From Biscogniauxia marginata (taxonomy: Eukaryota; Ascomycota; Sordariomycetes; Xylariales; Xylariaceae), in NCBI GenBank assembly GCA_022695795.1, contig MU404131.1, forward strand, positions 124,001-188,000: a DNA stretch of 64,000 nt, read 5' to 3'. The notes under the pieces are model-generated. The model was given only the letters and a program-made list of their open reading frames with translations. It did not search any database and was not told the origin of the DNA. The translations under genes and the position numbers were made by a program. Positions 22,010 through 52,066 of the stretch are shown here, one piece after another (position 1 is the first letter of the stretch; the number at the start of each line of letters is the position of its first letter).

Positions 22010-22447
22010 ACGTATTACATAAGCAAGTAGACGAAATAAGCTCGCGGATAAAATGGTTTCTTATATAAAATCGACTTTTTCGAAAATTCATAACTTTACG
22101 CGTAAAAGTCGGAAAAATCTCGAACCTTTTTTTTTTAGTTATATAACTATATAATTTAATTAAAGTAAAATTTAAAAAAATTAATATTAAAAAACACGAA
22201 AAAAAACGCGTAAAAACTAAAATTATAATAAAACGTATAGACCTTTTTATGTATTTCTTTATATATTTCACTTTTTATCTTTTTGAATTTTATTTTAGTT
22301 AAATTATATAGTTATATAACTAGAAAAAAAGGTTCGAGATTTTTCTGACTTTTACGCGTAAAGTCATAAATTTTCGAAAAAGTAGATTTTATATAAAAAA
22401 CAATTTCGTTCGCGAGCTTGTTTTATCTACTTGCTTATGTGGTACGT
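22010..22447. mobile_element. Foldback MITE copy A, nested in Fot1 copy 1
   Basis: Two arms of about 150 bp are inverted copies: left ACATAAGCAAGTAGACGAAA, right ...CTACTTGCTTATGTGGTACGT. A ~100-bp centre separates them. Flanking TA is duplicated (22008-22009 and 22448-22449). The second Fot1 copy has the uninterrupted sequence CGAATATATAAATT at 50821-50834, which proves the insertion and its TA target. TA duplication and ACGT ends fit mobilisation by a Tc1/mariner-pogo transposase, perhaps that of the Fot1-like element here. Confidence 0.75.
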
Positions 22448-23272: not shown

Positions 23273-23677
23273 ACGTGTCTTATAAACGAGTAGGCCACTT
23301 AATTTCCTATATAAAATCGACTTTTTTAAAAATTCAAAACTTTGCGCGTAAAACTCGTAAAAATCTCGGACCTTTTTCTTTAGTTATATAATTATAAAGT
23401 TGAATTAAAAATAAAATCGAAAAAAATAAAAGTAAAATGTATAAAGAAATACGTAAAAAGGTCTATACGTTTTGTTTTAATTTTAGTTTTTACGCGTTTC
23501 CTTTTCGTGTTTTTTGAAATTAATTTTTTTAATTTTAATTTTAGTTAAACCGTATAGTTATATAACTAATAAAAAAGGTCCGAGATTTTTTACGATTTTT
23601 ACGCGCAAAGTTATAAATTTTTGAAAAAGTCGATTTTATATGGGAAATCAAATGGCCCACTCGCTTATAAGACACGT
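23273..23677. mobile_element. Foldback MITE copy B
   Basis: 405 bp bounded by ACGTGTCTTATAAACGAG and CTCGCTTATAAGACACGT, with TA on both outer sides (23271-23272 and 23678-23679). Arms are inverted copies through AAAATCGACTTTTTTAAAAA and AAATCTCGGACC. No coding capacity. It is the least mutated member with both ends contiguous and is useful as a reference for the family. Confidence 0.75.
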
Positions 23678-24186: not shown

Positions 24187-24595
24187 TGTGACGAACCTCC
24201 TTGTGTGTTCCTAGTTAGCTGACTTCACAAGTAAGTACGTACTAGGTTTTCTTGATTTAAAGGTAACAATGAGTTAAGATTGGTTTAATTAATTTATAAT
24301 GTTATGTTCGTTAAAGAGGTTTTAAGGTATTTTCACTATAATATTAAAGAGTAACTATAGTTTTAGATTAATAGCTAAAAAACTAAAATGAATAACTAAA
24401 TACATAAGGAAATTCTAATTTACTTATACTTATTTCTCTTTTCCTTAAAATAAATAAGTCGCTAAATCGCTTTATTAAGAGGAGCGATTTATTAAGTCAC
24501 TAAATCATTAAATCGCTCTACTAAGGCGAGCGATTTATTAATTCTCTCGTTAAACCACGTAACTAACACATAGTTCTATTTTAAGGTTCGTAATA
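24187..24595 (-). repeat. 3' LTR of E1 (409 bp)
   Basis: Begins TGTGACGAACCTCC and ends TTCGTAATA on plus, against TGTAACAAACC...CCGTAACA in its partner. It contains three AATCGCT/AGCGATT inverted units, one cluster more than the 363-bp partner, which explains the length difference. The part at the left (plus orientation) is shared by all LTRs in the window. The part at the right, U3 in element orientation, is not. Confidence 0.9.
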
Positions 24596-24708
24596 TCATT
24601 CTTCCTTTCTAAGGATCTTTGTCTTAAAGATAAAAAGAGGGCCTTATTATTTTTTTTTCTTATTTATTACTTTTTTTAGGCTATTTTACTTTTTTTTTTT
24701 TTTTTATT

Positions 24709-25431
24709 ATGTTTCATCGTATAATTAAAACTCGAAAAAAAGTCTTTAATTACTCACGGCGTGTCGAGAAACAAATAGAAAATAAGGTTACTTTTTTAAA
24801 AGCTATTTCTTTAAACGGAAAAAAAGAGATGGCTTATTTTCACTATAAACGTTCTAAGAAGAAGTATATAGCTTTTAATAATTTCGACCATTATATTAAA
24901 TATATTTAGCTAAATCGAACTCGTTATAACGTATTTAGAATTACGCGTAAAAATATAACCGAAATTTTAGAATAATTTTAAAAAGTTAAGGCTAAATTAA
25001 AAGTGGCGAAGTCTTGTTATTAAGTTATATAATTAGTTACCAAGGAAAAAATGAACTATGTACGCCGTTTACGTACCGAACGTCGATTATAGTTAAGTAA
25101 GTTACGTAAAATAATTACTCGGGATTTTAATTCCCTCGAGGAATTAGAGCGCGTCAAGCGCGAAAAAAACAAACAAAAACGTTTTATTAAAGAATCACAA
25201 CGCATAAAAGGATCGCAGCGTTAGTCTAAATCTTCGTAGGGTTTACCTGCTTCCAAGGCCTACCCTTTTTCCTTTCTCGATCGTTCCTAACAGGATTAAA
25301 ACTTCGATATCTAGGCTTTCCTAGCCGGTCTAGATTCTAGCGGTAAAAATCCTTAATTTTATTCGTTAGGTTTTTTAAATGCTTAAGTAGTTCTTAAGTG
25401 TTTTCTTTTAATAAGTAACCTTCTTATTTAA
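24709..25431 (+). pseudogene. Antisense ORF of E1: putative Zn2Cys6-like / helical protein, RIP-decayed
   Basis: One frame from ATG 24709 reads through RIP-type stops (TAA/TAG, all derivable from CAA/CAG) to 25431. At residues 43, 46, 53, 62, 65 and 73 stand six tyrosines (C-to-Y by TGY-to-TAY). Their spacing, x2, x6, x8, x2, x7, equals the Gal4-type zinc cluster spacing and matches real cysteines in the two other copies. A basic helical region follows (YVRRLRTERRL, SLEELERVKREKNKQKRF), then a tail AFLAGLDSSGKNP. The last ~190 bp overlap the end of pol on the other strand. Zinc binding, DNA binding and dimerisation are inference. The open ancestral frame is strongly suggested. Confidence 0.7.
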
Positions 25432-28400
25432 CAAAATATTATAATTAACTTTTAACTTGTTTTAAATTTAATATCTTTTTTACTTCGTACTTATTAGGGT
25501 TTTCCTTAAATTCTAATTAGTTTTTTAGTATAACGTTATTTAGTATTAATTTTAGGAGCGAAACATGAAATACAAGATATATTCTAAATCCTTTTAGTAG
25601 TGCTAATTTATAGTTAATTTTCGAAATAACCTCTTTAATTTTATATAGTTTTAATTTCTTGAATTTAAGTTTTTTGCTAAGTCGTTTTGTTTTAATTTGG
25701 GGTGTTTTTAATATTACGCTTTGTCGTTAATAAAGTAAATAAACCATGTTTTCTTTTTTAAGAATTAGTTCCTTAATTTTTTTTTCATTATAATACTTTA
25801 TTATTTTATCTTAAATGAATTATAATTCTTTTTATAACCGTTATTATACTGCTTAAATCTTTTTGGATAATACTTCTACTCTCGGGGCCTTTATTTCGAT
25901 TCTTGGTACTTCCGTGAGTTCGATTGGTTGTTTTTAAGCTTCCGCCTTTTGCTTATATATTGCTTCGTATAGTGATATTTTTATGTTTTTATTAATCGAA
26001 GTGTTATATGCTATTTGGGCTATTAATAGCAATTTTATCTAGTTGTTTATTTCTTAGTTAATATAACTTCGTAAGTATTATTTTATTATTTGATTTAGTT
26101 TCTTTGTTTATTCGTTAGTTTAGGGGTAATACGTTATAAATAATTTTTACTTAATTTTTATTTGTTTTATTAAGCTAGTCCAAAATTTTAATATAAACAA
26201 CTTATTTCTATTTGAAATAACGCGTTTTAGTAGCCCATGTTTATTAACGTACTTTCTTAAGAAGTTGAAAGTTAATTGTTTTATTATGCTTAATTCGTTA
26301 AATGGTAAGAAGTAGGCGTATTTCGTGAGTTTATTAACGATTACTTATATGCTGTTATAAGGTACTCCTGTAGTAAGATCTTTTAACTCTAGAAGTTTCA
26401 CTATAAAATCCCATGTAATTATATTTTATACTTTGTTAAGTATTTAGGTTAATTATAATAATCTATATAGTTTATATCGTAATGCTTTAGCCTTATTATA
26501 AATATTATAATTCTTTATAATTCTTTTAATTATTTATTATATTCTTAAAAAGTCGAATTCTTTTTAAAGTCGTTTTATTATTTTGAAAATCCCTTGGTGG
26601 CTATATAAAGAATGTTCGTGAAATTCTTTAACGAATTCGTCTTGTATTCGTTTTAATACGTATACCTTTTCCTTGTACGAGAGAAGTTTGTCACTAAATC
26701 CTTATTAAGATTATAATTATTTTTCTTTTTAATTATAATTTTCCTTGAAACGTTGTTTCTAATCTCCTATGTTAATTTATATATAAATTAATATAATTAA
26801 TCCGTTATTTTATTACTAAAACATTTAGACATCTCTTTTATTGATTTTTGATTTATAATCTCCTTTTCTGCTAAGAAGATCTACTTAGATATTTTCCTTT
26901 CCTTTAATATACTGGATTTTAAAATTAAATTTAAATAGGAAGATCATTTAACGCTTATGTTTTTAATTAAGCGTTTATATTATTATGAATTATGTAAGGT
27001 TCTTATGGTTTAAGTAAATGTCGATAAGTTCCTTAATTCCGCTGAGTTATGGTTCCTATTCCTTTAGTGCTTTAATGATTATTAATAGTTCCTTGTTATA
27101 GATTTAATAGTTTAATTTAGCATTATATAGTGCTTTAAATAGGTACGTAACTAGGTACCATTTCTCATTGTCTTTTAATTGCTCTAGAACTGCTTTAATA
27201 ACGAAATCTAAAGCGTTTATCCTTAGTCGTTTCTTTTTATTTTCGTTTAGAAGTTTATATATAACCTTATTAATTACAACTTCTTTTAACTGCCGAAAAG
27301 CCTGTTTAGCTTTTTTAATAAAATAGAAAGCCTTTCTTATTTTTATTAGGGTAATTAGTTTTATTAATGGTTTAACAATACGCTTGAAATCTTTAATGAG
27401 TTATTTAACATAATTAACAAAGCCAAGAAATACGCGTACGTTTATAACACTTTTAGGTTTTAATTAATCCTTAATTGCTGTTATTTTTCCCTTTTAAATG
27501 CGGATTTCCCCTGGATTTATTATAAACCCTAAATAGTTTAGTTTTTTGACATGCTATTCACTTTTAGTTGGATGAACGAGTAGGTTCGCCTTTTCCAGGG
27601 CTTTTAATACTTGCTTTACATGTTTTTTATGCTTCTTCTCATTTTCTAAGTAAATTAAGATATCGTCCAAGTAAACAAATACAAATTTATCCAGAAATTT
27701 GCGAAAAACTATTATAATTATATGTTAAAATGTAGCGGGTGCGTTAATAAGTTTAAATAGTATAACTTTATATTTATAATGTTTATATATTATTTAAAAA
27801 GCTATATATTGTTCGTGTTTTTTAGTTATTTTAATTATATAATATTTATTACGAAGGTTTAATATTATAAAGATTTAAGTTTTATTAATTTATCTTTTTA
27901 TGAGTTTTATTAGTGGTAGCGAATACCCGTTTTTTTTAGTTATTTTATTAAGGTGTCGGTAGTTAATTATTCGTCGTTATACTAGGTTTCTTTCTTTATC
28001 GACATGTTATTTCCCGTTTTTATCGATTTTAAGTACCATAATTACCGGGTATTTTAACGAGGATTCGGATTCTCGAATATATCCTTTGTCGAGATCTTTT
28101 TAAATTCCCTTTTATAATGCTCTTTATTTTTCCTAATTTATAAGATACACTAGAAATAATTTTAGCTGTTTTCCTTTTTTAAAGTGGATTTAATGATCTT
28201 ATTAGCTATATTTCGGTAATTCTTTTTTTGTTTTATTTTTAAATAATTTATAGAAACGAAAGTACTTACGTAATACTCTTTTCGTTAAATTTTCAGGCTT
28301 GGTTACTCGAATTATATAAGTAATATGTTTCGTTTTTACATTTATTTTTCTGGAGTTACTTGCGGTACTCATCTCGTAACCCGTAGTAATTAACTCCTTT

Positions 28401-31230
28401 TATTTCTGATTTTAATAAAGCGTGTTTATCTCGAAATTTATTCGTGGATTACTTCTTTTAAGCTAATTCATTCCCAAGATTATATCGTGATTTAATATAT
28501 ATGTAATATTAAGGATAATTTATTTAAAATACCCTTAAATAGTTACCGAAAAAGGAATTATTTTTCTTAATACCTTACTATTTTTATAACTAAATATACT
28601 TTTTTTAAAGTTTTATAACTTATACGAACTTTATTTATATACTTATAGTATTTTGTTTTTTTAAGCTACCTTTATTAAGATATAGCTTTTATTTACTCTT
28701 AAATCTATTAAGGCTTTATACTCTCTTCTATTATATCTAACTTTAGTTATAATAATATTATTAAGTCCTAATTAGATTTTATATAAGGACTTATTATTTA
28801 TGGCTTCTCGCTGCTTTACTAGCGAGAGCTTTTGCCGTTTTTTTGGTTTTCTACGTCCCTTCTCCTTTAGTTTTTTTTTAGTTATTATAACCCAGATATC
28901 CTTCTATTCTTAGGCTTTCATAAGAGCGTGTTTCTAGTAATCATTACTTAGATAGTCTCTTTAATTACCCTTTACGTAATAAGGGGTAAAAGGTCTATCC
29001 TTTATATAAAACCTTATACATTAAAACTTTAATTCTTTTTCGAGGGCCTTTTTGTAACTCAAGTTTATTCTATTAACTCGGAATTTTTTAAAGTTCTAGA
29101 TTATCCTCGAATAAAATAAATAATTATTAAGTTTACTTATTAAAGGTATCTCGATGTCTCCCCTTAGGTTTATATTAATTTCCGGAAGTTTTCCTCCTTT
29201 TTTAAGGTATATTTTAATGATTTATTTATAACCTCGTTTAGTCGCACGTGTTTTTACTTATTACTTTATTAAGTGTTTTTTTATAAAGCCAAATAAATTA
29301 ATGTCATATTTAGTTCGTTTTTTAAGCCATTATGGAAAATATAATCCTTTTTATAATTCTTATAATTCTTTTTTAATCTCGTCTTTTTCGAAACCTACTT
29401 CGAGTAAGTTATATACGTCGCATGGTATTAAAGTGTAATATATATAACTCTTAATAATTGTTTCGTTACTTTTTTCGGAACCGGAGTGAAAATAATATAC
29501 TCAAGGAAAATGTAGCTATTGTGGGGTGTTATCACAAATATATTTATTTTCTTTCGTGTCGTCACTTTTTAGTTCTTAAAGATAATAACTAACTTTATTT
29601 TTAAAACTTTTATGTATTTAATAAGCATCGTTAATATAAAAGCTTTAATGTAACGATATATATTCCCTTAAGCTTTAATAAATATTATAATTATTATTTA
29701 TATAAAACCTTTAGTTTAAGTTATTATACTGGCTTTTTCTTTAATAGGTTTCGCATTTATCGTTTTTGTAATGGCTTTAATATAAATCACTATGGTTTAA
29801 CTTAATTCTTAAGTCGTATCCTAGCTTGTAATTATCATATACGTATAGTAGTTCGCCCTCGTTATATCTTTATTTGGCTTGTTTTAATATGAGATATTCT
29901 AAATATAAGTAGTCATTCTCTAGATAGTCCTTATAATTAACTTAATAAAATTTATAAACTCTTTTTATAAAGGTCTTCTCGATCTTTTTTACCTTAATAA
30001 TATTAATAATAAATACTTGGTTTATTTTTTCGTTATTTTTAAATTAAACCCTTACCTCGGCGACTCTTTTCTCGAGTTAAAGAATCCCTTTTATTCTTGG
30101 TTTTTATTTCTTAAGACTTTAATACTCGTTTTTATAATGTCTTTTTTTTTTATAGTTAAAATACTTAATAGTTGATTTATCTCGTTTTTTTTATTCCTTT
30201 TAAATAACGTTGATTTTAATAGGGTTTAACTTAGTTCTAGTGCCTTTTTTGATTTCGGTACCGCTTTTGTGATTTCCTCTTTTTAGTTGATTGCTATTCC
30301 TTCGTTGTACCGTCTTTTTCTTTTTAAGGTACTGTTCGAAGTTCTCGTTATTAATGGCAATTGCCATTATAACGTAGTTATTAAACTTTCTTAGGTTCTT
30401 TTCTTTATATAGGTTTATTTTATATAACTTATTTTTTATATGGTTTTTTAATTCTTAATAAAACAAGTAATTATAACTAACTTGCGAGTTTTTTGAACTT
30501 AATAGCGTAGTTTAAAGCCTTTTTATCTTGTCGTAATTTATGAAATCGAGTTTCGGCTTATTACTTAAGAATTAAATTACTAAATATAGACTTAAGTTGT
30601 TTTTTAAACTCCTTATAATTCTTAAAAACTTTTTTCGTGTCTTTCTAAGCGTTTAATCTATTTTCTAAATAATCCTTTAACACTAGTTAAAACCAGGTTA
30701 AGGCGGTTCCGGCGAGAAACTAAAATACCGTGAAAACCTTTTATTCCTTAGTAGTAATTATTTTATAATAAAACCGTAAATAGGTTCTAGCTTAAATCAA
30801 AAATCCTTTTAAATCGCTTAACCCATTATATTTACTAGGTATAATTAATTTAAAACCCTTTACGTCGGGGGTTATTATATTATTTTCGTCGTTTAAGTTG
30901 TTGGGGTCGCTATCGTTTAAAGGTGGTTACTTATCTCTAGAAAGTAGGGGTTATTTTATTTGTTTATTTTCTTTTTTAAGTATTTCTTTCTCCTCCTTTT
31001 CTTCTTTCTTAAATGATTCTTCTTACTAAGCTTCCGAGATGTCCTTTTATGACTCTTTTTTAGCTATAACTATAATGAACTTTTATGTTAATTCTTTTAA
31101 ACCTTTTAATTATACCGTAAAAAGACTTAAAGCTTTTATTTAAAAGCTTATTAATTATTATTTTTTTACTTATTTCTTTTCTTATTACCCTTTAGTCTTA
31201 AGGGGTATGCTTGTCCTGGGACTATTCGAT
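25230..31230 (-). pseudogene. gag-pol of E1, decayed
   Basis: Landmarks in reading order: gag zinc knuckle at 30122-30163, where the C-x2-C-x4-H-x4-C residues read Y, Y, H, Y (YFNYKKKRHYKNEY). RT palm motif NYRHLNKIT near 27938-27964 and catalytic YLDD at 27662-27673. RNase H segment INALDFVIKAVLEQ at 27178-27222. Integrase HHCC segment FHEHSLYSHQGIFK at 26591-26640, and integrase core VIVNKLTKYAYF at 26312-26345 with Asp replaced by Asn. Chromodomain YEVKKILNLKQVK ... EGYLLKENT near 25378-25489. Numerous Trp and Gln codons are stops. The C-terminus reads GRPWKQVNPTKI and stops near 25230. Limits of gag are approximate. Confidence 0.85.
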
Positions 31231-31284
31231 TAAAAGTCCCTTCTCTTAAACCAATATTAAGCACTAATTAAGGAGCTATTAAAA

Positions 31285-31647
31285 TGTAACAAACCTCCTT
31301 ATATGTTCCTAGTTAACTAACTTTATAAGTAAGTACGTACTAGGTTTTCTTGATTTAAAGGTAATAATGAGTTAAGATTAGTTTAATTAATTCACAATAT
31401 TATGTTCGTTAAAGAGGTTTCAAGGTACTCTCATTATAATATCAAAGAGTGACTATAATCTTAGATTAATAGCTAAGAAACTAGAATGAATAACTAAATA
31501 CACAAAGAAATTCCAATCTACTTATACTTATTTCTCCTTTCCTTAAAATAAATAAATCGCTAAATCGCTTTACTAAAAGGAGCGATTCACTGATTCTCTC
31601 GTTAAACCACGTAACCAGCACGTAGTTCCATTCTGGAGTCCGTAACA
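31285..31647 (-). repeat. 5' LTR of E1 (363 bp)
   Basis: Plus-strand ends TGTAACAAACC and CCGTAACA, i.e. TG...CA termini in both orientations. It is less mutated than its partner at 24187-24595, with C or G retained at several positions where the partner has T or A. It lacks one ~46-bp AAATCGCT-type repeat present in the partner. Confidence 0.9.
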
Positions 31648-37670: not shown

Positions 37671-38084
37671 TGTAACGAACCTCTTTATGTGTTCCTAATT
37701 AACTAACTTTATAAGTAAGTACGTGCTAGGTTTTCTTAATTTAAAGATAATAATGAATTAAGATTGATTTAAGTGATTTACAATGTTTTATTCGTTAAAG
37801 AGGTTTTAAGGTACTTTTATTATAATATTAAAGAGTAATTATAGTCTTAAATTAATAGCTAAAAAACTAGAATAAATAACTAAATACGTAGGAAATTTTA
37901 ATTTACTTATACTTCATTCTTTATAAGGAGTTATATTTATATTCTTTTTAATTCTTAAGAAAATAACAGAAAATCTTGGTATTCTCCTTAATTCTTAGGA
38001 GAATAACAAAGAATTTTTTCTAGAGTCATGTAACCTTAAATCATATAACCACTTAAATTCTCTTTACCTTTATTAAGTTGTAAC
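37671..38084 (-). repeat. 3' LTR of E2 (414 bp)
   Basis: TGTAACGAACC...GTTGTAACA. It differs from the partner 48218-48632 almost only by T/A in place of C/G, that is by transitions, and is the more heavily mutated of the pair. Confidence 0.9.
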
Positions 38085-38151
38085 ATTATATCTCCCCTTT
38101 AAATGGTTTTGTTTTTAAAACTTCTTTTCTTAGTAACCTTTTATTTTAATT

Positions 38152-38814
38152 ATGTTATTTTATCGTGTTACTAAAAATGTGTAAATAGGTTTTAAAAAAA
38201 GGAATTCTTTTAAATACCAATACGAATTAACTACCGTTATTAATTAATTTAAATATATAATTATACTTTATATTTATTGTTTTAAGAAGGGCTTATTATG
38301 TAAGATGTTAAAAAATTAAAAAAAATGTTAGAATTATAACGAGATTAATGTTATTTCTTGTAACGGTAATCACGTTTCCTTAAAATCCCTTTAAAACATC
38401 TAGAAAAAAAAACTTAGGATAAATCGAGAAAAACGGGTAGCCGTTTAATAACTTTAAGAACTGTTAAGTAAAATTACGCAGTTAAATCGTTAATTTAAAT
38501 AGTTATATAAACGTAAGGTTTAATTTATTCGACGTAAACTTTAAAACCTAGATAAGTTAAAAAATTAAAAATGTATTAAGGCGGAGTAAAAGCGTTTTTA
38601 AGCCGAATAACAATTTTTAACTAAATAAGTTAAAGTTACTTCCAAGGTTGTCCCCTCTTTTAACTAGTCATAACTAGATCACAACCTAGGTCTTTAAATC
38701 CCCCTAGGCGATTTGGGTTTTAGCGGTAAAAGCTTTTAAGCTTAGTCGTTAAATTCTTTAAATATTTAAATGGTTTTTAAGTATTCTTTTTTAATAAGTA
38801 ATCTTTTTATTTAA
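38152..38814 (+). pseudogene. Antisense ORF of E2: Zn2Cys6-like, best-preserved cysteines
   Basis: ATG at 38152 lies in the same frame as a cluster at 38269-38361. Codons at 38269, 38278, 38299, 38326, 38335 and 38359 are Tyr, Cys, Cys, Cys, Tyr and Cys, with spacing x2, x6, x8, x2, x7. Four of six cysteines are therefore still present. Downstream frames read RF*AE*Q and VVPSFN*S*L, matching E3 with Gln codons turned into stops. As in E1 it lies between the 3' LTR and the end of pol, on the opposite strand. Confidence 0.65.
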
Positions 38815-41108
38815 CAAAATATTGTAATTAATCTTTAACTCGTTTTAAATTTAATATCCTTTTTATTTCGTACTTATTAGGGTTTTCCTTAAATTTTAGT
38901 TAGTTTTTTAGTATAATGTTATTTAATGTTAATTTTAGGAGTAAAATATGGAATATAAAATGTATTCTAGATTTTTTCGATAGCGCTAGTTTGTAGTTAA
39001 CTTTTAAAATAACCTTTTTAATCTTATATAATCCTAATTTCTTAAATTTAAGTTTTTTACTAAGTCGTCTTATTTTGATTTAAGGTGTTTTTAACGTTAT
39101 ACTTTGTTATTAACGGAGTAAGTAAATTATATCTCTTTTTTAAAAAATTGGTCCTTTAATTCTTTTTTTATTATAATACTTTGTTATTTTGTTTTAAATA
39201 AACTATAATTCTTTTTATAGCTATTACTATATTACTTAGACCTTTTTAAATAGTACTTTTACTTTTAAGGCCTTTATTTCGACTTTTAGTATTTCCGTGA
39301 GTTTAATTAATTATTTTTAGATTTCCGCTTTTTACTTATATATTATCTTGTGTAATAATATCTTTATATCCTCGTTAACCGAAGTGTTATATACTATTTA
39401 AACTATTAATAATAATTTTACTTAATTATTTATTTCCTAATTAATATAACTTCGTAAATATTGTTTTATTATTTAGTTTAATCTTTTTATTTATTCGTTT
39501 ATTTAGAGATAATACGTTATAAACAATTTTTATTTATTTCTTATTTATTTCATTAAATTTATCCAAAATTTTAAAGTAAATAACTTGTTTTTATTTAAAA
39601 ACTAGCTGTTTTATTATGCTTAATTCGTTAAATAGTAGGAAGTAGGCATATTTCGTGAGTTTATTAATAATTACCTATATATTGTTATAAAGTACTCTTA
39701 TAATAGGATTTTTTAACTTTAGAAGTTTCACTACAAAATCCTATATAATTATATATCACGCTTTATTAAATATTTAGATTAATTATAGTAGTTTATATGG
39801 TTTATATCGTGATGTTTTAGCCTTATTATAGATATTATAATTTTTTATAATTCTTTTAATTGTTTATCGCATTCCTAGAAAGTTAAATTCTTTTTAAAGT
39901 TATTTTATCGTTTTGAAAATTCCTTAATAGCCGTGTAGAGAATATTTATAAAAATTTTTAACGAATTCGTTTTATACTCGTTTTAATATATATACCTTTT
40001 CTTTATATAAAAGAAGTTTGTCGCTAAATCCTTGTTAAAATTATAATTATTTTTTCTTTTAATTATAGTTTTCTTTAAAACGTTATTTCTAGTTTTTTAT
40101 GTTAATTTATATGTAAGTTAATATAACTAATCCGTCATTTTGTTATTTAAATATCTAGACATCTCTTTTATTAATTTTTAACTTATAATCTCCCTTTCTA
40201 CTAAGAAGATCTGCTTAGATATTTTCCTTTCTCTTAATATACTGGATTTTAAAATTGAATTTAAACAAGAAAATCATTTAACACTTATATCTCTAATTAA
40301 GCGTTTATATTATTATGAATTATATAAGGTTTTTATAATTTAAATAAATATCAATAGGTTCCTTAGTTTTGTTAAGCCATGATTCCCATTTTTTAACGCT
40401 TTAATTACTATTAATAATTCTTTATTATAAATCTAATAATTTAGTTTAATACTATATAGTGCTTTAAATAGGTACGTGACTAGATACCATTTTCCATTAT
40501 TTTCTAGTTATTTTAAAACTACTTTAATGCCGAAATTTAAGGCGTTTATCTTTAGTCATTTCTTCTTATTTTCGTTTAGAAGTTTATATATAACCTTATT
40601 AGTTATAACTTCTTTTAGCTATTAAAAAGCCTGTTTAGCTTTTTTAATGAAATTAAAAGCCTTTTTTGTTTTTACTAAGGTAGTTAATTCCGTTAATAGT
40701 TTAGCGATACGCCCGAAATCTTTAATGAGTTATTTAACGTAGTTAATAAAGCTAAGAAATGTATATATATTTATAACACTTTTAAGTTTTAGCTAATCCT
40801 TAATTATTGTTATTTTTCCTTTTTAAATGCGGATTTCTCTTGGATTTATTATAAACCTTAAATAGTTTAGTTTTTTAATATGTTATTTATTTTTAGTTAA
40901 ATAAATGAGTAGATTTGCTTTTTCTAGGGCTTTTAACACTTGTTTTATATGTTTTATATGTTTCTTCTCGCTTTTTAAGTAAATTAATATATCGTTTAAA
41001 TAAATAAATACAAATTTATTTAGAAACTTACGAAAGATCATTATAATTATATATTAAAATATAATAAGTGCATTAATAAATCTAAATAGCATAACTTTAT
41101 ACTTATAA
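38640..41108 (-). pseudogene. pol 3' half of E2 (chromodomain, integrase, RNase H, part of RT)
   Basis: Collinear with 25230-27800 of E1: the same integrase segment near 39640-39675 and the RT active-site region near 40985-41000. It stops abruptly at 41108-41113, where the LTR of E3 begins, in the middle of the RT domain. Confidence 0.75.
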
Positions 41109-41113
41109 TGTCT

Positions 41114-41581
41114 TGTAACGAACCTCCTTGTGTGTTCCTAGTCAGCTGACTTCACAGGTGAGTACGTACTAGGTTTTCTTGATTTGAAGGTAATAATAGG
41201 TTAAGATTGATTTAATTGATTTATAACGTTATGTTCGTTAGAGAGGTTTCAAGGTACTCTCACTATAGTCTTAAATTGATAGCTAAAAAACGAAAGACTA
41301 ATTACATAGGAGATTCCAGTTTACTTATACTCATTACTTCTTTTTTATAACATGTTAGATATGCTTAAATAAAACTTATCCACTCTTATTCATAATACTG
41401 GATTAACTTGGATAAGATTTATTCACTTTTATTTACATCACTAGATTAGCTTAAATAAGATTCATTTATTTTTATTTATATTATGTAATATTAAATCACT
41501 TTTTTATATTAAATCGGAATATTTATAATTTAATCTTAATATTTTTATTAACTTGTTATTAACACTATTTAATTTATAATA
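41114..41581 (-). repeat. LTR of E3 (468 bp), distinct U3
   Basis: TGTAACGAACCTCCTTGTGTG start, end at ...AATTTATAATA. The first ~220 bp (plus) match the other LTRs. The rest contains three tandem ~50-bp units with GATTAGCTTAAATAAGATT-like words found in no other LTR here. Confidence 0.8.
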
Positions 41582-41653
41582 TTATTTCTCCTTTTTAAAA
41601 ATCTTTATCTTAAAAATCTTTTTTTCTTTATAAGTTAACTTTTTTATATTATT

Positions 41654-42351
41654 ATATTAAATACTCGGGTTACTAAACGTCGGCGTATTAACCAAAAAAA
41701 AAAACATGAAGAACTTTCTAGTCGCATTTTTAGAACTAGTTTTAATATTAATACTATACCTTGTTCTTATTACTTTAATTATAATTTAAAATGCGTTATA
41801 GCTTTAAAGGCGTCGAAGAAATATAGTAAATATATTCTTCACAATCGTTAGTGTGACGGAACGGGCATTCTGTTAAACGCATTTTATCGCCTTAACACGA
41901 AAAAAGCGCGTTTATCTTCGCGGGAGCGGGAAGCGAAAGCATTTTTAAAACAAATAACTAAAGCTATATTTAAAATGTAATTACAAATATTAAAGTTTAT
42001 TTCGCATATTTGGAAGTTTTGTTGTTAAAAGGAATTACTAAAAAAAAAAAGGGTTTAAAAATGTTATAACGTAGTTTTCAAAATCTAGATAAGTTAAAGG
42101 AGTAGAAGCGCCTTAAAGAAGAACAAAAGCGTTTTCAAGCCGAACAACAGTCTTTAGCCGAACAAGCTAAAGTTGCTTTTAAGGCCGTCCCCTCTTTTGA
42201 CTAGTTATAACTAGGCCACGACCTAGATCCTTAGACCTTCCTGGGCGATCTGGGTTTTAACGGTGAAAACTCGCAAGTTTATTCGTTAGGTTTTTTAGGT
42301 GTTTAAGTAGTTCCTAAGTGTTTTCCTTAAGTAAGTAACCTTCTTATTTAA
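41654..42351 (+). pseudogene. Antisense ORF of E3: Zn2Cys6-like with best-preserved helical part
   Basis: Begins at ATA 41654 (ATG in the other copies). The cluster at 41762-41854 reads CSYYFNYNLKC, a nine-residue spacer, then YSKYILHNR*C, i.e. spacing x2, x6, x9, x2, x6 with three Cys kept. After a frameshift in the A-run at about 42035-42050 comes GLKML*RSFQNLDKLKE and KRLKEEQKRFQAEQQSLAEQ, a strongly helical K/E/Q segment. The tail includes TFLGDLGFNGENSQVYSLGF. Stops are TAG/TAA at Gln positions. Confidence 0.68.
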
Positions 42352-45300
42352 CAAAATATTATAACTAACTTTTAACTCGTTTTAAATTTAATATCTTTTT
42401 TATTTCGTATTTATTAGGGTTTTCCTTAAATTTTAGTTGGTTTTTTAGCATGGCGTTATTTAATGCTGGTTTTAAAAGTGAAATATAAAATATAAAATGT
42501 ATTTTAAATCTTTTTAGTAACGTTAATTTATAATTAACTTTCGAAATAACCTTTTTAATCTTATATAGTCTTAATTTCTTAAATTTAAATTTTTTATTAG
42601 GTCGTTTTATTTTAATTTAAAGTGTTTTTAATATTATGCCTTATCGTTAACGAAGTAAGTAAATTATGTTTTTTCTTTTAAAAATTAGTTCCTTAATTCT
42701 TTTTTTATTATAATACTTTGTCATTTTATCTTAAATAAACTATAATTCTTTTTATAGCCGTTATTATACTACTTAGACCTTTTCGGATAGTACTTCTACT
42801 CTTAGGGCCTTTATTTCAACTCCTGGTGCTTTTATGAGTTTAATTGGTTGTCTTTAAACTTTTACCCTTTGCTTGTACACTGCCTTGTGTAATAACATTT
42901 TTATGTTCTCGTTAACCGAGGTATTATATGTTATTTAAGTTATTAATAGTAATTTTACTTAATTGTTTATTTCCTAGTTAATATAACTTCGTAAATATTA
43001 TTTTATTATTTAGTTTAGTTTTTTTATTTGTTTATTTATTTAAGGATAATACGTTATAAATAACTTTTATTTAACTTTTATTCGTTTTATTAAGTTTATT
43101 TAAAACTTTAAAGTAAATAGCTTGTTTTTATTTAAAATAATGCGTTTTAGTAATTTATATTTATTAACGTATTTTCTTAAGAAATTAAAAACTAATTATT
43201 TTGTTGTGTTTAATTCGTTGAATAATAAGAAGTAGGCATATTTCGTGAGTTTATTAACGATTACTTATACGTTATTATAAGGTACCTTTATAGTAAGATT
43301 TTTTAACTTTAAAAGTTTCACTATAAAATCCCATATAATTATGTGTTACGCTTTGTTAGGTATTTAGGTTGGTTATAATAGTTTATATGGTTTATATTGT
43401 GATGCTTTAACCTTATTATAGATGTTGTAATTCTTTATAATTCTTTTAATTGTTTATCGCATCCCTGGAAAGTCGAATTCTTTTTAAAGTCGTTTTATTG
43501 TTTTGAAAATTCCTTGGTGGCTATGTAAAGGATGTTCGTGAAATTCTTTAACGAATTCGTCTTGTATTTGTTCTGGTACGTATATCTTTTCCTTATACGA
43601 AAGAAGTTCGTTGTTAAATCTTTATTAAAACTGTAATTATTTCTCCTTTTAATTGTAATTTTCCTTGAAACGTTATTTCTAGTCTTTTATGTTGATTTAT
43701 ATATAAGTTAATATAATTAATTTATTATTTTGTTATTTAAATATCTAGATATCTCTTTTATTGATTTTTAATTTATAATCTCCCCTTTTATTGAAAAGGT
43801 CTATTTAAATATTTTTTTTTTGATGTGCTGGATTTTAAAATTAAATTTAAACAGGAAAATTATTTAAAGTTTATGTTTTTAATTAAGCGTTTATGTTATT
43901 ATAAATCATATAAGGTTTTTATGGTTTAAATAAATATTAATAGGTTCTTTGGTTTTATTAAGCCATGGTTTTTATTCTTTTAATGCTTTAATAACTATTA
44001 ATAATTCCTTGTTATAGATTTAATAGTTCAATTTAGTACTATATAGTGCTTTAAATAGGTATATGACTAGGTACCATTTTTTATTGTTTTCTAGTTACTC
44101 TAGGACTGCTTTAATGGCGAAATCTAAGGCGTTTATCCTTAGTCGTTTCTTCTTATTTTTATTTGGAAGTTTATATATAACTTCACTAGTTACAACTTCT
44201 TTTAGCTGTTAAAAAGCCTGTTTAGCTTCTTTAGTGAAATAAAAAGCCTCTCTTGTTCTTGTTAAAATAGTTAGTTCTATTAATAGTTTAGCGATACACC
44301 TAAAGTTTTTAATAAGTTATTTAACGTAATTAACAAAGCCAAGAAATATGTGTATATTTATAACATTCTTGGGTTCTGGTTAATCCTTAATTATTATTAT
44401 TTTCCCTTTTTAAATGCGGATTTCTCCTAGACTTATTATAAATCCTAGATAATCCAGTTTTTTGACATGTCATTTATTTTTAGTTAGGTGGATAAGTAGG
44501 TTTACTTTTTTTAGGGCTTTTAATACTTGTTTTACATGTTTTTTATGTTTCTTCTCGCTTTTTAAATAAATTAATATATCGTTTAAATAAATGAATATAA
44601 ATTTATCTAGAAACTTACGGAAGATCGTTATAATTATATATTGAAATGTAACAAGTGCGTTGATAAGTCTAAATAGTATAACCTTGTATTTATAATATTT
44701 ATGTATTATTCGAAATACGGTATATTATTCGTGTTTTTTAATTATTTTAATTATATAATATCTATCGCGGAGGTTTAATGCTATAAAGATTTAGGCTTTG
44801 CTGATTTGTCTTTTTATAAGTTTTATTAGTAGTAACGAGTATTTGTTTTTTTTAGTTATTTTATTAAGGTGTCGGTAGTTAATTACTTGTCGTTATACTA
44901 GGTTTCTTTTTTTATTAATACGTTGTTTCTTGTTTTTATTGATTTTAAGTATAATGATTACTAGGTATCTTAATAAGAACTCTAATTCTTAAATATATCT
45001 TTTATTAAGATTCTTTTAAATTCTTTTTTATAGTGCTTTTTGTTTTTCTTGATTTATAAGATATACTAAAAATAGTTTTAATTATTTTTCTTTTTTAAAG
45101 TAAATCTAATAATCTCATTAGTTATGTTTTAGTAATTCTTTTTTTGTTTTATCTTTAAATAATTTATAAAAACGGAAATACTTACGTGATACTCTTTTCG
45201 TTAGATTTTTAAGCTTAGTTACTCGAATTATATAGGTGATATGTTTCGTTTTTGCATTCGTTTCTTTAGAGTTACTTGCGGTATTTATTTTGTAACCCGT

Positions 45301-48180
45301 AGTGGTTAACTCCTCTTGTCTTTGATTTTAATGAAGCGTGTTTATTTCGAAATTTATTCGCGGATTACTTTTTTTAAGCTAATTCATTCCTAGTATCATG
45401 TCGTGACTTGATATGTGTGTAATATTAAAAATGATTTATTTAAGATGTCTTTAAATGGTTATTAAGAGAGGGACTATTTCTTTTAGCACTTTGCCATTCT
45501 CGTAACTAAATATATATCCTTTAAAGTTCCGTAGTTAGTATGAATTTTATTTATATATTTATGGTATTTTGTTTTTTTGAGTTATCTTAATTAAGATATA
45601 GCTTTTATTTACTCCTGAATTTGTAAGGGCTTTATATTCCCTTTCATTGTACCTAACTCTGGTTATAATGGTATTATCAAGTCTCGACTAGACTTTATAT
45701 AAGGACTTATTATTTATGGCTTCTTGCTGCCTTACTGGTGAGAGCCTTTGCCGTTTTTTGGTTTTTTACTCCTTTTCTCTTTTAGGTTTCTTGTTATAAC
45801 CCGAATGTCTTTCCATTTTTAGGCCTTCATAAGAACGTGTTTTTAATAATTATTATTTAAACAGTTTTTTTAACTATTTTTTACGTAATAAGGAGTAAAA
45901 AGTCTATTTTTTATATAAAACCTTACATATTAAAACTTTAATTCCTTTTCAAGGGCCTTTTTATAACCTAAGTCTATTTTTCTATTAACTTAAAACTTTT
46001 TAAGGTTTTAAATTATCTTTAAATAAAGTGTATAATCCTTGAGTTCGTTTATTAAGGGTAATTTAATGTTTCTTTATAAGTTTATATTAATTTCTAGAAA
46101 TTTACCCTTTTTTTAAGGTATACCTTAACAATTTGTTTATAGCTTAGTTTAATTATACGTATTTTTGCTTGTTGTTTTATTAAGTGCTTTCCTATTAAGC
46201 CGAATAAACTAATGTTATACTTAACGCGTTTTTCGAGCCATTATAAAAGATATAGTCTTTTTTATAATTCCTATAACTCGTTTTTAACTTCGTCTTTTTT
46301 AAAACCCGCTTCGAGTAAATCATATACGTCGCATGGTATTAAGATGTAACACATGTAACCTTTAATAATTACTTTATTGCTTCTTTTGAAACTCGGGTGA
46401 AGATAACATGCTTTAAAGTAATGTAGCCATCGTGGGACGTTATTATAAATGTATTTATTTTCTTTTATGTTATTACTTTTTAGTTTTTAAGGATAATAAC
46501 CAGCTTTATTCTTAAAATTTTTATGTACTTAATAAACGTCGTTAGTATAAAAGCTTCAATATAACGATGCGTGTTCCCTTAAGTTTTAATGAATATCGCA
46601 GTTATTATTTATGCAAAACCTTTAATTTAAGTTATTATGCTAGCTTTTTCCTTAGTAGGTTTTACACTTGTCATCGTTATAATAGCTTTAATATAGCTTA
46701 TTATAGTTTAACTTAATTCTTAAGTCGTATCCTAGTTTATAATTATTATATTCGTATAGTAATTCGTTTTTGTTATATCCTTATTTAGCTTGTTTTAATA
46801 TAAAATATCCTAAGTATAAGTGGTTATTCTTTAAATAGTTTTTATAGTTAACTTAATAATATTTATAAACTTTTTTTATAAGGACTTCCTCGTTTTTCTT
46901 TGTTTTAATAGTGATAATAATAAATACTTAATTTATTTCTTTATTATTTTCGAAATAAACTCTCGTTTTAAAAGTTCTTTTCTCGGGTTAAGAAATTCCT
47001 CTTATTTTTAGTTCTTGTTTCTTAGGACTTCGGCACTCGTTTTTATAATGTCTTTTCTTTTTATAATTAAAACACTTAATGGTTAATTTGTCTCGTTTCT
47101 TTTGTTCCTTTTAAGTAGCGTTAATTTTAATGAGGTTTAATTTGGTTTTAGTGCCTTTCCTAGTTCCGGCACCGCTTTTGTGATTTCCTTTTTTTAGTTG
47201 ATCGCCATTCTTTTGTTATACCGTCTTTTTCTTTTTAAGGTATTATTCGAAGTTTTTATTATTAATAGTAATTACTATTATAACGTAGTTATTAAACTTT
47301 CCTAGGTTCTTTTCTTTATATAGATTTGTTTTATATAACTTATTTTTTATATAGTTTTTTAGTTTTTAATAAAACAAGTAATATAAGCTCTTAATAAGTA
47401 GTTATAACTAGCTTGCAAGTTTCTTAAACTTAATAGCGTAGTTTAAAGCCTTCTTGTTTTGTCGTAATTTATAAAGTCGAGCTTTAATTTGTTGTTTAAA
47501 GATTAAATTGCTAAATATAGACCTAAGTTGTTTTTTAAATTCTTTGTAATTCTTAAAAACCTTTTTTATGTTTCTTTAAGCGTTTAATCCGTTTTCTAGA
47601 TGATTTTTTAACACTAGTTAAAACCAGGTTAAAGCAGTTTCGACGAGGAGCTGGGATACTATAAAAACCTTTTATTTTTTAATAATAATCGTTTCGTAAT
47701 AAAACCGTAAATAGGTTTCGGCCTAAATTAAAAATCCTTTTAAATCGCTTAACCTATTATATTTACTAGGTATAATTAGTTTAAAACTCTTTATATTAAG
47801 AGTTGTTATATTATTTTCGTCGTTTAAGTTATTAAGGTTATTATCGTTTAAAAGTAGTTTTAATTATTTATTTCTAGAAAGTAAAAGTTGTTTTATTTAT
47901 TTATTTTCTTTTTTAGGCGTTTTTTCCTTTTTCTCTTCTTTTTCTTTAAATGATTTTTTTTGCTGGGCTTTCGAGGTGTCCTCTTAAGACTCTTTTTTAG
48001 CTATAATTATAATTAACTCTTATATTGGTTTTTTTAAATCTTTTTATTATACCGTAAAAGAATTTAAAGCTTTTATTTAAGAGTTTATTAATTATTATTT
48101 TTTTATTTCTTTTTTTGTTACTTTTTGGTTTTAAGGGGTATATTTATCCTGGAACGGTTCGACCGAAAGTCCTTTCTTTT
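42180..48180 (-). pseudogene. gag-pol of the E3/E2 chimera
   Basis: Domains in the E1 order. The gag zinc knuckle at about 47035-47078 keeps two cysteines (KCFNYKKKRHYKNEC), showing that the tyrosines in E1 are mutated cysteines. The RT active site near 44577-44590 reads YLND. The integrase core is near 43225-43265 and the pol C-terminus (NPDRPGRSKDLGRG) near 42190-42260. It is less decayed than E1 in places, but stops are frequent. Confidence 0.75.
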
Positions 48181-48217
48181 AAACCAATGTTAAGCACTAA
48201 TTAAAAAGCTATTAAAA

Positions 48218-48632
48218 TGTAACGAACCTCCTTATATGTTTTTAGTTAACTAACTTCATAAGTAAATACATACTAGGTTTTTTTAATTTAAAGGTAATAA
48301 TGAATTAAGATTAGTTTAAATAATTTATAATGTTTTGTTTATTAAAAAGGTTTTAAGGTATTCTTATTATAATATTAAAGAGTAACTATAGTTTTAAATT
48401 AATAACTAAAGAATTAAAATAAATAACTAAATACGTAGGAAATTTCAATTTACTTATATTTCATTTTTTATAAGGAGTTATATCTACATTCTCTCTAATT
48501 CTCAAGAGAACAACAAAGAATCTTGGTATTCTCCCTAATTCTCAGGAGAACAACAGAGAATTCCTTCTGGAGTCATGTGACCTCAGATCACATGACCACT
48601 TAAATTCTCTTTACCCTTGTTGGGTCGTAACA
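48218..48632 (-). repeat. 5' LTR of E2 (415 bp), least mutated
   Basis: Its right half retains normal G+C, with a duplicated unit ATTCTC(A)AGAGAACAACA that shows what the family looked like before RIP. Ends GGGTCGTAACA, followed by the TCATA duplication. Confidence 0.9.
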
Positions 48633-48637
48633 TCATA

Positions 48638-49052
48638 CAAGCGAGTGGGCCATTTAATTTTCTATATAAAATCGACTTCTTTTTTTAAAAATTTATAACT
48701 TTACGCGTAAAAATCATAAAAATCTCGGACCTTTTTTATTAATTATATAATTAAAAGGTTTAATTAAAAGTAAAATCAAAAAAATAGAAAAAAATATATA
48801 TAAAGAAATACGTAAAAAGGTTTATATGTTTTGTTTTAATTTTAGTTTTTACGCGTTTTCTTTTTATGTCTTTTAATATTTATTTTTTCGATTTTATTTT
48901 TAGTTAAACTTTATAATTATATAACTAATAAAAAAGGTTTAAGATTTTTACGATTTTTACGCATAAGGTTATGAATTTTTAAAAAAGTTGATTTTATATA
49001 GAAAATTAAGTGGTTTACTCGTTTATATAACTTGCTCGCTTATAAGACACGT
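48638..49052. mobile_element. MITE copy C, main portion
   Basis: Continues the terminus at 37644-37670. It runs from CAAGCGAGTGGGCCATTTAA to CTTGCTCGCTTATAAGACAC followed by GT and TA. Arms are inverted copies of those of MITE B. Each terminus has two ~17-bp subrepeats (ATAAGCGAGCAAGTTAT type). Joined across the retroelement it measures about 442 bp. Confidence 0.72.
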
Positions 49053-49554
49053 TATAATTTAAATAATTTTAACTTTTTTAAAAAAATTTTATTAAATTTA
49101 TGATAATTATTTACGTTATTTTATATTTATTATTATTATATTAATTTTAATAATTATTTTAATTATAAATTTTATTTTATTTTAATTATATATATATATA
49201 TATATATTTAAATATTATATTTAATAATTATATTATATATTAATTTATCTTATTTTTAATATATATTTAAGGTTTCGTAAAAAGCTTTTTAATTATCGAT
49301 TTATTTATTTAAGTGCGTTTAAAAAGGTTTTTATTATTATATAAAATTAAAAACTTAGTTTTATTTAACGCGCTTTATATTACGATTATATAATAAAATA
49401 ATTATTATTTTAATAACGTAATAAAAACGAGAAAAAAATTATTTAAATTTAATATATTAATTAATCGCGTAAATATATTTTTAAATCGTTATTATAATAT
49501 AATATAAAAGATATTATAAATTTTTAATAATTTATAAAAATTAATATTTAAATA
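49053..49554. other. AT-rich DNA, nothing recognised
   Basis: Extremely AT-rich, with a (TA)n run near 49180-49208. No repeat ends matching the families above. Confidence 0.5.
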
Positions 49555-51628
49555 ATGTATCTTATAAGTAAGTAAGCTAGTTTTTATAACTTTCATAGTT
49601 TTAATTATTAAAAAATATTTACATGGCATTAAAATTAATTAATAATTATTATTATTTAAATCGTTTTTTTTAGTTTTACGTTTTAAAAATTAAATACTTT
49701 TTTTATATTAAGTATTTAATTTTTTAACGCGTAATTTAAATTAATTAGTTTATAAATAATATATTTATTATTATTATTAAAACGCGTAAAATTATATTTA
49801 TATGTTTTTTAAAATAAAAAAATTAAAATTTATTTATTTATTTATTTTAAAACTTAATAATATTAATAAAAACTTAAATAATTTATATGGTTAAATATAA
49901 ATAGTATTATTTAAAAATAAGTTATTATAAATTAATAATATTTTATAATATTTTTTATATAATATTATAAAAACGAAATAATAATATATTTATATGATTA
50001 ATTATAAAATTAAATATTTAAAAACTTACGTTTTATAAAAAGATAATAATCGTTCGACGTATTATTAATTTAAATAATTAATTATTTTTTTGTTTAAGTT
50101 ACGTTATTATAATAATAAACATTTTATTATATAAACGCGACGCAAAGCGTGTTAAAAAAAACTAAATCTTTAATTTCGTGTAATAATAAAAATCATTATA
50201 AACGCGTTTAAATAAATAAACAATTAATTAAAAAGCTTTATATAAAAATTTAAATATATATTAAAAATGGTTTAAATTAATACGTAAAACGGTTATAAAG
50301 TATAAAATTTTAAAAGAAAATATATATAATTTTAATAAATATAAAACGATATAAATAACTTTAATAAGTTTAATAAAAAATAAAAAATAAGTTATAATTA
50401 TTTAAATTAATAATATTAATAATTTTATTATATTATTATTTATTATATTAATTAAAAAAAGTATTTAATTTTATAATATCGTAATAACTTATTATTATTA
50501 AAAATAAAAATAAAATAATAATTAATAATTAAATAATAAATAAACTTAATATAAAATTTATAAAGCATTTCGATTTTTATATTAAAAATTAAATACGAGG
50601 TTTTAAATGTTTATTAATTTTATAAAATTTAAAAAATGTTATAAAAAACTTAATATTATTATATTTTATATATTTAATTATTCGTTATATAAGTTATAAC
50701 TTTATAATTTTATATGTTTTAATATTTTTAAAAAGGTATATAATAATTATTTAATAAAACTTAATAAAACGTTATTATTATTACGTTATAAAGAAAAATT
50801 CGTTATTATAATAATAATTTCGAATATATAAATTAAGTTTCGCGTAATTAAATTAATTTTTTTTAATTTTAAAAAGATATTATTATATTATTTTTTATAT
50901 AAAAAACGCGTATACTTTTTTTAATCTTAATATAAATTAAGTATTTTAAAAAGTTAAAATATTTATAATAACTTATAAACTATTATTATAAATAAAATTA
51001 AAAAAATATTAAAGAAGTTTTTTTATAAATATTATAAATATTTATAATTAATTTATAAAACCTATTTTATTATTAATATATAAAGTGGTTTTATTATAAA
51101 ATAAATTACATTTTTAATAAGTAACGTAAAACTAAAAATAAATAATTATAAATAAGAAAAACACTTAATATAAAAAATATTATAATTAATAAAAAAAGAT
51201 GTCTCGAAAAAAAGTAATAATTAAATAAAAAATAATATAATATATATAATTAAACTAGTTATAATATACGTATTTATATAACGAATAAAAATACGTTTAA
51301 TAATATAATAAATAAAAATATAATTAATAATATTTGTATAATAAATAAAGAAGTATTTAGTAATTTAAATTTTAAGGAGTTATAATTAATTTTATTTATT
51401 ATTAATTCTTTATTTTAATTTTAAAGGGTTTTAACTCGAAAAATATAATAAATTAATTAACTTAAATTACATGTTAAAAAACTAAATACTTAATATAAAA
51501 AAGGTATTTAGTTTTTAAAACGTAAAACTAAAAAAGACGATTTAAATAATAGTAATTATTAATTAATTTTAATATTACGTAAATGTTTTTTAATAGTTAA
51601 AATTACGAAAGTTATAAAAATTAATTTA

Positions 51629-51727
51629 NNNNNNNNNNNNNNNNNNNNNNNNNNNNNNNNNNNNNNNNNNNNNNNNNNNNNNNNNNNNNNNNNNNNNNNN
51701 NNNNNNNNNNNNNNNNNNNNNNNNNNN
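51629..51727. other. Assembly gap (99 N)
   Basis: A run of N of about 100 bases, probably a placeholder rather than a measured length, lying directly before the 17-bp tandem array. Confidence 0.97.
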
Positions 51728-51848
51728 ACTCGTTTATATGGCTTACTCGTTTATATGGCTTACTCGTTTATATGGCTTACTCGTTTATATGGCTTACTCG
51801 TTTATATGGCTTACTCGTTTATATGGCTTACTCGTTTATAAAACACGT
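51728..51848. repeat. 17-bp tandem array (about 7 units) at transposon terminus
   Basis: Perfect repeats of ACTCGTTTATATGGCTT, ending ACTCGTTTATAAAACACGT next to TA. The unit equals the terminal subrepeat seen once or twice at the ends of the Fot1-like elements and MITEs, so the array is a local expansion of a transposon end. It is interrupted on its left by the gap. Confidence 0.9.
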
Positions 51849-51850
51849 TA

Positions 51851-52066
51851 ACGTTATTTAAAAATAATAATAAATATATTAATTTTTAATTAAATAATAT
51901 AAATTACGCTTTAAAAAACTAAATATTTAATATAAAAAAGTATTTAGTTTTTAAAGTATAAAACTAAATAAAACAGTTTAAATAATAATAATTATTAATT
52001 AATTTCGATATAACATATATAATTTTATTTACAAGCTTATTTAGTTTATTTGCTTATATAATATGT
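51851..52066. repeat. Right terminal arm of another Fot1-like copy
   Basis: Contains the hairpin arm (AAAAAACTAAATATTTAATA ... GTATTTAGTTTTT) and ends GCTTATATAATATGT next to TA (52067-52068). Followed at about 52100-52150 by a (TATTTT)n-like simple repeat. Confidence 0.5.

What the first reader, a model, noticed from the sequence alone, without database searches (positions are those of the whole stretch)
24709..25431. Antisense Zn(II)2Cys6-like ORF carried by a fungal Ty3/gypsy retroelement
In E1, between the end of pol and the 3' LTR, a plus-strand frame opposite gag-pol is open from ATG 24709 apart from TAA/TAG codons that all revert to Gln by one C-to-T change. Six positions with Gal4-type spacing (x2, x6, x8, x2, x7) are Tyr here and Cys in the sister copies, the change RIP makes from TGY to TAY. 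A basic helical region follows. Three copies (also 38152-38814 and 41654-42351) share start position, cysteine spacing, helix and tail, so this was a real gene of the element. Antisense ORFs at this site are known in some plant Ty3/gypsy lineages. I know of no described fungal zinc-cluster version.
Basis: partly seen in the sequence, partly recalled or inferred. Interest (0 to 1): 0.88.

Follow-up and report, generated by a model that had tools for sequence, protein, structure and literature searches.

The report
Antisense zinc-cluster-like gene in fungal retrotransposon
A family of fungal jumping genes, now mostly destroyed by mutation, carried an extra gene on the opposite strand that probably made a small protein with six conserved cysteines spaced like those of a fungal DNA-binding domain; opposite-strand genes at this site are known from other elements, with function unknown.

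Summary
Opposite gag-pol, between pol and the 3' LTR, lies a protein-coding gene at window 24709-25386 (+), not to 25431. In 54 copies from this genome, changes that RIP (repeat-induced point mutation) cannot make favour third codon positions (p=0.0001). Six columns, each with some Cys, are Cys or Tyr in 54 of 54 copies, spaced CX2CX6CX8CX2CX7C, the Zn(II)2Cys6 pattern (chance spacing 3e-7). Two divergent families, including the window's other two copies, give similar results. The last 200-260 bases overlap the 3' end of pol, and both frames look constrained there. One copy without RIP signature has an intact 230-aa frame; another keeps all six Cys in an intact N-terminal part.

Limits: PF00172 is that six-Cys copy's best Pfam hit but below cut-off; profile and structure comparisons were no help; no expression data; the large protein database was off. 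An antisense gene at this site (brtn) is published for Boty-like elements of Botrytis; I could neither read that paper nor compare sequences. My reading: a new variant of a known kind, probably a dimeric nuclear DNA-binding regulator.

The parts
24709..25386 (+). antisense gene of element E1 (225 codons plus stop), broken in this copy by RIP-type stops
   Evidence: codon-position bias of transversions, shared terminal stop in 53 of 54 copies
24835..24927 (+). six-cysteine cluster, codons 43, 46, 53, 62, 65, 73 (all Tyr in this copy)
   Evidence: only Cys/Tyr in 54 of 54 copies; spacing chance 2.9e-7
24928..25203 (+). basic, predicted helical region after the cluster; boundaries approximate
   Evidence: alignment; in the intact relative L091 a helix at 74-116, mean pLDDT 66 in its first block and 84-97 from residue 81
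25127..25386 (.). tail-to-tail overlap of the antisense gene with the 3' end of pol; pol may stop earlier, up to about 25187
   Evidence: transversion changes 0.21-0.22 per column in each phase, against 0.87 (antisense third positions) and 0.64 (pol third positions) outside
25127..31284 (-). gag-pol region of E1, broken by RIP; RT, RNase H and chromodomain over cut-off, integrase zinc-binding below it, searched piece by piece
25343..25489 (-). chromodomain of pol
   Evidence: PF00385, 25.2 bits against 25.1, E 1.5e-5; position computed from the frame
24187..24594 (.). 3' LTR of E1 (element on minus strand); ends approximate
   Evidence: pairs with 31285-31644
31285..31644 (.). 5' LTR of E1; ends approximate
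24595..24708 (+). leader between LTR and ATG; begins with the complement of the probable polypurine tract
   Evidence: sequence of window, L090 and L091; the tract is inferred
38152..38769 (+). same gene in a second element family; end placed by eye at the matching stop
41654..42055 (+). N-terminal part of the same gene in a third element family; later part lies in another frame

Best explanation
This is a genuine, selected antisense accessory gene of chromodomain Ty3/gypsy elements, present in at least three diverged element families of this genome. It encodes a protein of about 225-230 residues: a short basic start, a six-cysteine cluster with Zn(II)2Cys6 spacing, then a long basic helix, with its last third overlapping the pol 3' end on the other strand. 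Shown: coding, conservation of the six cysteines, overlap, RIP decay. Inferred: the six cysteines hold two zinc ions, the helix dimerises, and the protein, transcribed antisense from the 3' LTR side, goes to the nucleus and binds DNA. The role I think most likely is control of the element's own transcription from the LTR, comparable in logic to HBZ of HTLV-1. The copy in the window is dead.
For: Codon-position bias of transversions in 54 copies (0.493/0.295/0.871 per column, p=0.0001) and in two other families (10 copies p=0.0001; 11 copies p=0.0017). Six Cys/Tyr-only columns with the right spacing in 54 of 54, again six of six in the 10 copies of family 2 and five of six in the 11 of family 3, where the sixth has one exception. 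Intact natural frames: 230 aa in L090; 145 aa with all six Cys in L091. Reduced third-position change of both frames in the overlap. In the L091 model a helix starts at the first Cys of the first CXXC pair, another spans the second pair, and a long helix follows. PF00172 is the best Pfam hit of L091.
Against: PF00172 below cut-off for L091 and absent for L090 and for 16 of 16 RIP-damaged copies scanned. Profile comparison with 12 host Zn-cluster domains was no better than shuffled controls. Foldseek and VIA-align gave nothing relevant. In one subfamily of family 2 a seventh column (27) is also Cys/Tyr only, so the six are not unique there. The overlap part shows no codon phase of its own (p=1.0). 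No other-species relative could be examined. No transcript, zinc or DNA-binding data. A candidate LTR repeat was confined mostly to one subfamily.
Confidence: 0.55

Rival explanations
1. The gene is real, but the six cysteines form another zinc-binding or structural module, and the protein works as an RNA/DNA chaperone, in nuclear import or in integration rather than as a transcription regulator.
For: No match to PF00172 over cut-off and no fold match; cluster profile no better than controls against host Zn clusters.
Against: Spacing fits the binuclear cluster in all three families; PF00172 is still the best hit of the six-Cys copy.
Confidence: 0.3
2. This is simply brtn, the antisense gene published for Boty-like elements of Botrytis cinerea, seen in another fungus. 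(Compatible with the best explanation; it bears on novelty.)
For: Same place and orientation in a chromodomain Ty3/gypsy element (passages of papers); a Monilinia transcript resembles both truncated Pol and BRTN, as expected from the overlap seen here.
Against: BRTN sequence not held, so homology is untested; the passages I read do not mention zinc or cysteines of BRTN.
Confidence: 0.65
3. The open frame is an accident of base composition or a shadow of pol on the other strand.
For: The last third does lie opposite pol and shows no phase preference of its own (p=1.0).
Against: Codons 1-139 lie outside pol and show strong third-position bias; intact GC-rich natural frames exist.
Confidence: 0.02
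4. The gene matters as an antisense transcript that makes double-stranded RNA or small RNA, the protein being secondary.
For: Proposed in general for such genes (passages of PMC7264820).
Against: Constraint is on codons and on cysteines, which an RNA-only role does not predict.
Confidence: 0.08

Closest known systems
brtn, antisense gene of Boty-like Ty3/gypsy elements (Botrytis cinerea, Sclerotinia; Zhao et al. 2011, PMID 21802103, not held: known here only from its title and from passages of citing papers)
   Same: Fungal Ty3/gypsy with chromodomain; extra gene between pol and 3' LTR on the opposite strand
   Different: Sequence not available, so homology untested; no zinc-cluster or dual-coding statement in the passages I read
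Antisense TRP28 (PF04195) genes of plant Retand elements, and Grande gene23, RIRE2, PvRetro13 (PMC11963269, PMC7264820; passages)
   Same: Same site and orientation, retained in most copies, some nuclear or suspected to bind DNA
   Different: Plant elements; Retand is described as non-chromovirus; no TRP28 match here; here a six-cysteine cluster and overlap with pol
Fungal Zn(II)2Cys6 regulators (PF00172, Gal4 type)
   Same: Six cysteines with CX2CX6CX5-12CX2CX6-8C spacing (definition recalled) followed by a helix
   Different: Below the PF00172 cut-off, carried by a retroelement, short protein
HBZ of HTLV-1 (named in a passage of PMC11963269; its bZIP nature is recalled)
   Same: Antisense gene near the 3' LTR, nuclear regulator
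   Different: Different DNA-binding module; analogy only

Membership tests
Fungal Zn(II)2Cys6 cluster (PF00172) | six cysteines spaced CX2CX6CX5-12CX2CX6-8C (definition recalled) | tested here: met
   Family 1: 54 of 54 copies Cys/Tyr only at all six columns, up to five Cys in one copy. Family 2: six columns in 10 of 10 copies; in 18 further copies one Arg is the only exception, and a seventh column is Cys/Tyr too. Family 3: five columns in 11 of 11, sixth in 10 of 11. L091 has all six Cys
Fungal Zn(II)2Cys6 cluster (PF00172) | profile score above curated cut-off | tested here: not met
   L091 13.5 bits against 21, E 0.079; L090 none; 0 of 16 RIP-damaged copies
Fungal Zn(II)2Cys6 cluster (PF00172) | binuclear-cluster fold | tested here: inconclusive
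   L091 model pLDDT 72, cluster region 62-71 by block; no relevant fold match
Fungal Zn(II)2Cys6 cluster (PF00172) | zinc and DNA binding | not testable with these tools
   needs protein
brtn of Boty-like elements | gene between pol and 3' LTR, antisense to gag-pol | tested here: met
brtn of Boty-like elements | chromodomain Ty3/gypsy host element | tested here: met
   RVT_1, RNase H and Chromo over cut-off (Chromo by 0.1 bit); integrase zinc-binding and Tf2-1 SH3 below it
brtn of Boty-like elements | sequence homology to BRTN | not tested
   sequence and paper not held; protein database off
Plant TRP28 antisense genes (PF04195) | TRP28 domain | tested here: not met
   no match in 16 copies plus L090 and L091

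The most novel reading that the evidence does not exclude
A lineage of fungal chromoviruses carries its own Zn(II)2Cys6-type DNA-binding regulator on the antisense strand, dual-coded with the end of pol, so that element control and the chromodomain end of pol evolve locked together; it would be a fungal counterpart of antisense retroviral regulators such as HBZ, reached with a DNA-binding module typical of fungi.
Probability: 0.35. Interest if true: 0.78.

Novelty: new variant of a known kind. Interest (0 to 1): 0.58.

Why it matters
Antisense genes between pol and the 3' LTR recur in plant Ty3/gypsy elements and in at least one fungal group, and the passages I read say that their function is unknown. 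A six-cysteine module with Gal4-type spacing gives a concrete, testable guess for a fungal one: zinc binding, DNA target, nuclear site. The overlap with pol makes it a natural case of two strands coding under joint constraint. As a method, transversion-only codon tests let one recognise a gene in a family almost wholly destroyed by RIP without rebuilding it.

Tried and rejected

Papers. Ten searches. None of the rows listed pointed, by title or start of abstract, to a zinc-cluster gene in a fungal retroelement; but lists were capped (for example 20 of 181, 12 of 396), I opened only a few papers, and most subscription journals are not held. led to the papers that cite brtn. In PMC3248453 (fungal LTR survey) the words zinc and antisense do not occur in the main text.

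Rows dropped before the 54-copy test: L041 (5' end broken) and L024 (only the N-terminal half homologous); window copies 2 and 3 were tested in their own families. In family 2 the test ran over the first 150 codons, which may reach into the pol overlap of that family.

Full report
What is there. The window is part of a 45.3-Mb, 229-contig genome. AT-rich blocks (GC 0.09-0.28 per kb) at about 20-32 kb and 36-53 kb lie between flanks of higher GC. Their dinucleotides carry the mark of RIP: E1 has TA/AT 1.36 and (CA+TG)/(AC+GT) 0.47, the outer flanks 0.90-0.93 and 1.04-1.07. E1 is a Ty3/gypsy element on the minus strand, LTRs about 24187-24594 and 31285-31644, with RVT_1, RNase H and (by 0.1 bit) chromodomain over the Pfam cut-off, and integrase zinc-binding and SH3_Tf2-1 below it, found in four pieces read with X at stops.

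The antisense frame is a gene. A DNA search of the own genome with 24500-25500 gave 42 matches; a protein search gave 150; counts are lower bounds. I fetched 39 of the DNA-matched places plus 16 further ones and, with the window copy, had 56 copies; L041 and L024 were dropped, leaving 54. RIP makes only transitions, so I counted purine/pyrimidine changes by parsimony on a tree built from the same alignment. In the part that does not overlap pol (24709-25126) they are 0.493, 0.295 and 0.871 per column at codon positions 1, 2 and 3 (231 changes, permutation p=0.0001); between LTR and ATG there is no phase (p=0.63); in pol alone the variable phase is pol's own third position (0.638 against 0.36-0.40, p=0.014). 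This is what a protein-coding gene leaves before RIP destroyed it.

Where it ends, and the overlap. In the + frame each column before codon 226 that is a stop in 30% or more of the copies is a sense codon in some; codon 226 (25384-25386) is a stop in 53 of 54. The intact copy L090 ends at the matching place, judged by eye. Pol's frame ends at 25127-25129 in 47 of 54 copies; in L090 it stops about 60 bases earlier, so the overlap is 200-260 bases. Taking 25127, purine/pyrimidine changes in the shared part fall to 0.21-0.22 in every phase; pol third positions 0.218 against 0.638 outside (p=0.00075), antisense third positions 0.218 against 0.871 (p=0.00005). Neither frame shows its own periodicity there (p=1.0), which is expected if both are constrained but is weaker evidence than the clean part. 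The last stretch, 25301-25386, is less constrained (0.24-0.38), so the final residues of the antisense protein are the least certain.

The six cysteines. Before the pol overlap, codons 43, 46, 53, 62, 65 and 73 are the only columns that hold at least one Cys and are more than half Cys or Tyr; they are Cys or Tyr in 54 of 54 copies. One more such column, at 185 in the overlap, is 0.91. Cys occurs in 5 to 20 copies per column; no copy keeps all six (the maximum is five), and 17 keep none, the window copy among them. RIP turns Cys codons into Tyr codons, so this is the decay of six cysteines. If six columns fell at random among 139 codons, the chance of the pattern CX2CX6CX5-12CX2CX6-8C is 2.9e-7.

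Two more families. The copies at 38152 and 41654 belong to two diverged families. In 10 copies of the first, exactly six columns are Cys/Tyr only with some Cys, spacing x2,x6,x8,x2,x7; changes 0.273/0.160/0.440, p=0.0001. In 11 copies of the second, five columns are exclusive and the sixth has one Ser; spacing x2,x6,x9,x2,x6; changes 0.445/0.336/0.636, p=0.0017. In 18 further copies of the L090 subfamily the third position is Cys in two and Tyr in 16, so the Tyr of the intact copy there may be an old RIP change; one Arg was the only exception at the six columns, and a seventh column (27) is Cys/Tyr only there.

Natural unbroken copies. L090 (contig C118) has an open 230-aa frame, GC 0.46 and no RIP signature (TA/AT 0.75), five Cys and one Tyr at the six positions; pol on the other strand has a few stops. 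It was the only full-length match without stops among those listed (150 candidates scored, 167 matches, not all listed). L091 (contig C2) looks like an internally deleted element in which the start of gag is joined to an intact N-terminal part of the antisense gene with all six Cys. L091 and L090 match each other at 40% identity, E 7e-10.

Is it a Zn cluster? PF00172 is the best Pfam match of L091, over residues 47-67 of the 145-aa frame, but at 13.5 bits against 21; L090 has none. Host Zn-cluster profiles did not separate the copies from controls, save one copy slightly above them. AlphaFold on L091 with 12 stop-free natural sequences gave pLDDT 72: a helix at 37-42, starting at the first Cys of the first pair, another at 51-63 spanning the second pair, and a long helix 74-116, confident from residue 81 on (block means 84-97); Foldseek and VIA-align were inconclusive. 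So the spacing criterion is met and the family criterion is not; I call it Zn(II)2Cys6-like.

How it may work (inference). The ATG lies about 115 nt inside the 3' LTR in E1 and about 75 nt in L090; the leader begins with the complement of the probable polypurine tract. A transcript starting in the LTR would therefore be short-leadered and antisense. A cluster followed by a long helix is the layout of dimeric fungal regulators (general knowledge). The most economical role is feedback on the LTR promoter; nuclear import or integration are live alternatives.

What is known. Citing papers state that Boty-like elements of Botrytis carry an antisense gene, brtn (passages of PMC8365987; PMC7264820; PMC4227169), with gag, RT, IN and CHROMO domains in the same element. 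A Monilinia transcript resembles both truncated Pol and BRTN (passage of PMC5987419), which fits the overlap found here. In plants, 97% of Retand clusters carry antisense TRP28 genes predicted to bind DNA (passages of PMC11963269). The brtn paper itself is not held, so I saw only its title and cannot say whether its authors noticed the cysteines. My recollection that many fungal 'hypothetical proteins' share such a cysteine pattern comes from no call and is only a lead.

Verdict. A real gene, a known kind of place, and a content for that place that I did not find described in what I could read. Gene reality is near certain; zinc-cluster nature likely; function a reasoned guess.

Noticed in passing
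L091 (G000:C2:903700-904700): GC-rich, apparently internally deleted element in which the start of gag is joined to the N-terminal part of the antisense gene; perhaps a non-autonomous derivative.
   Followed up: partly
L090 (G000:C118:1-1400): Copy without RIP signature at a contig end, antisense frame intact while pol has a few stops.
   Followed up: partly
L021 and L103: Short in-frame tandem expansions inside the basic tail of the antisense gene (a repeated QHIKRS unit in L021, a KRLKKK unit in L103); in L021 the array lies around the pol overlap.
   Followed up: no
window 22155-22400 and 23303-23548; 49207-49445 and 50075-50313: Long inverted repeats (80% and 79% complementary) inside the AT-rich blocks beside the elements.
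   Followed up: no
window 37671-52528: Two pol 3' regions but one pol 5' region among four LTR copies: a truncated or nested pair of elements whose LTR pairing is unclear.
   Followed up: no
own genome: More than a hundred damaged copies of the antisense gene or pieces of it, in at least three families (150, 135, 171, 135, 167 and 135 overlapping matches).
   Followed up: partly
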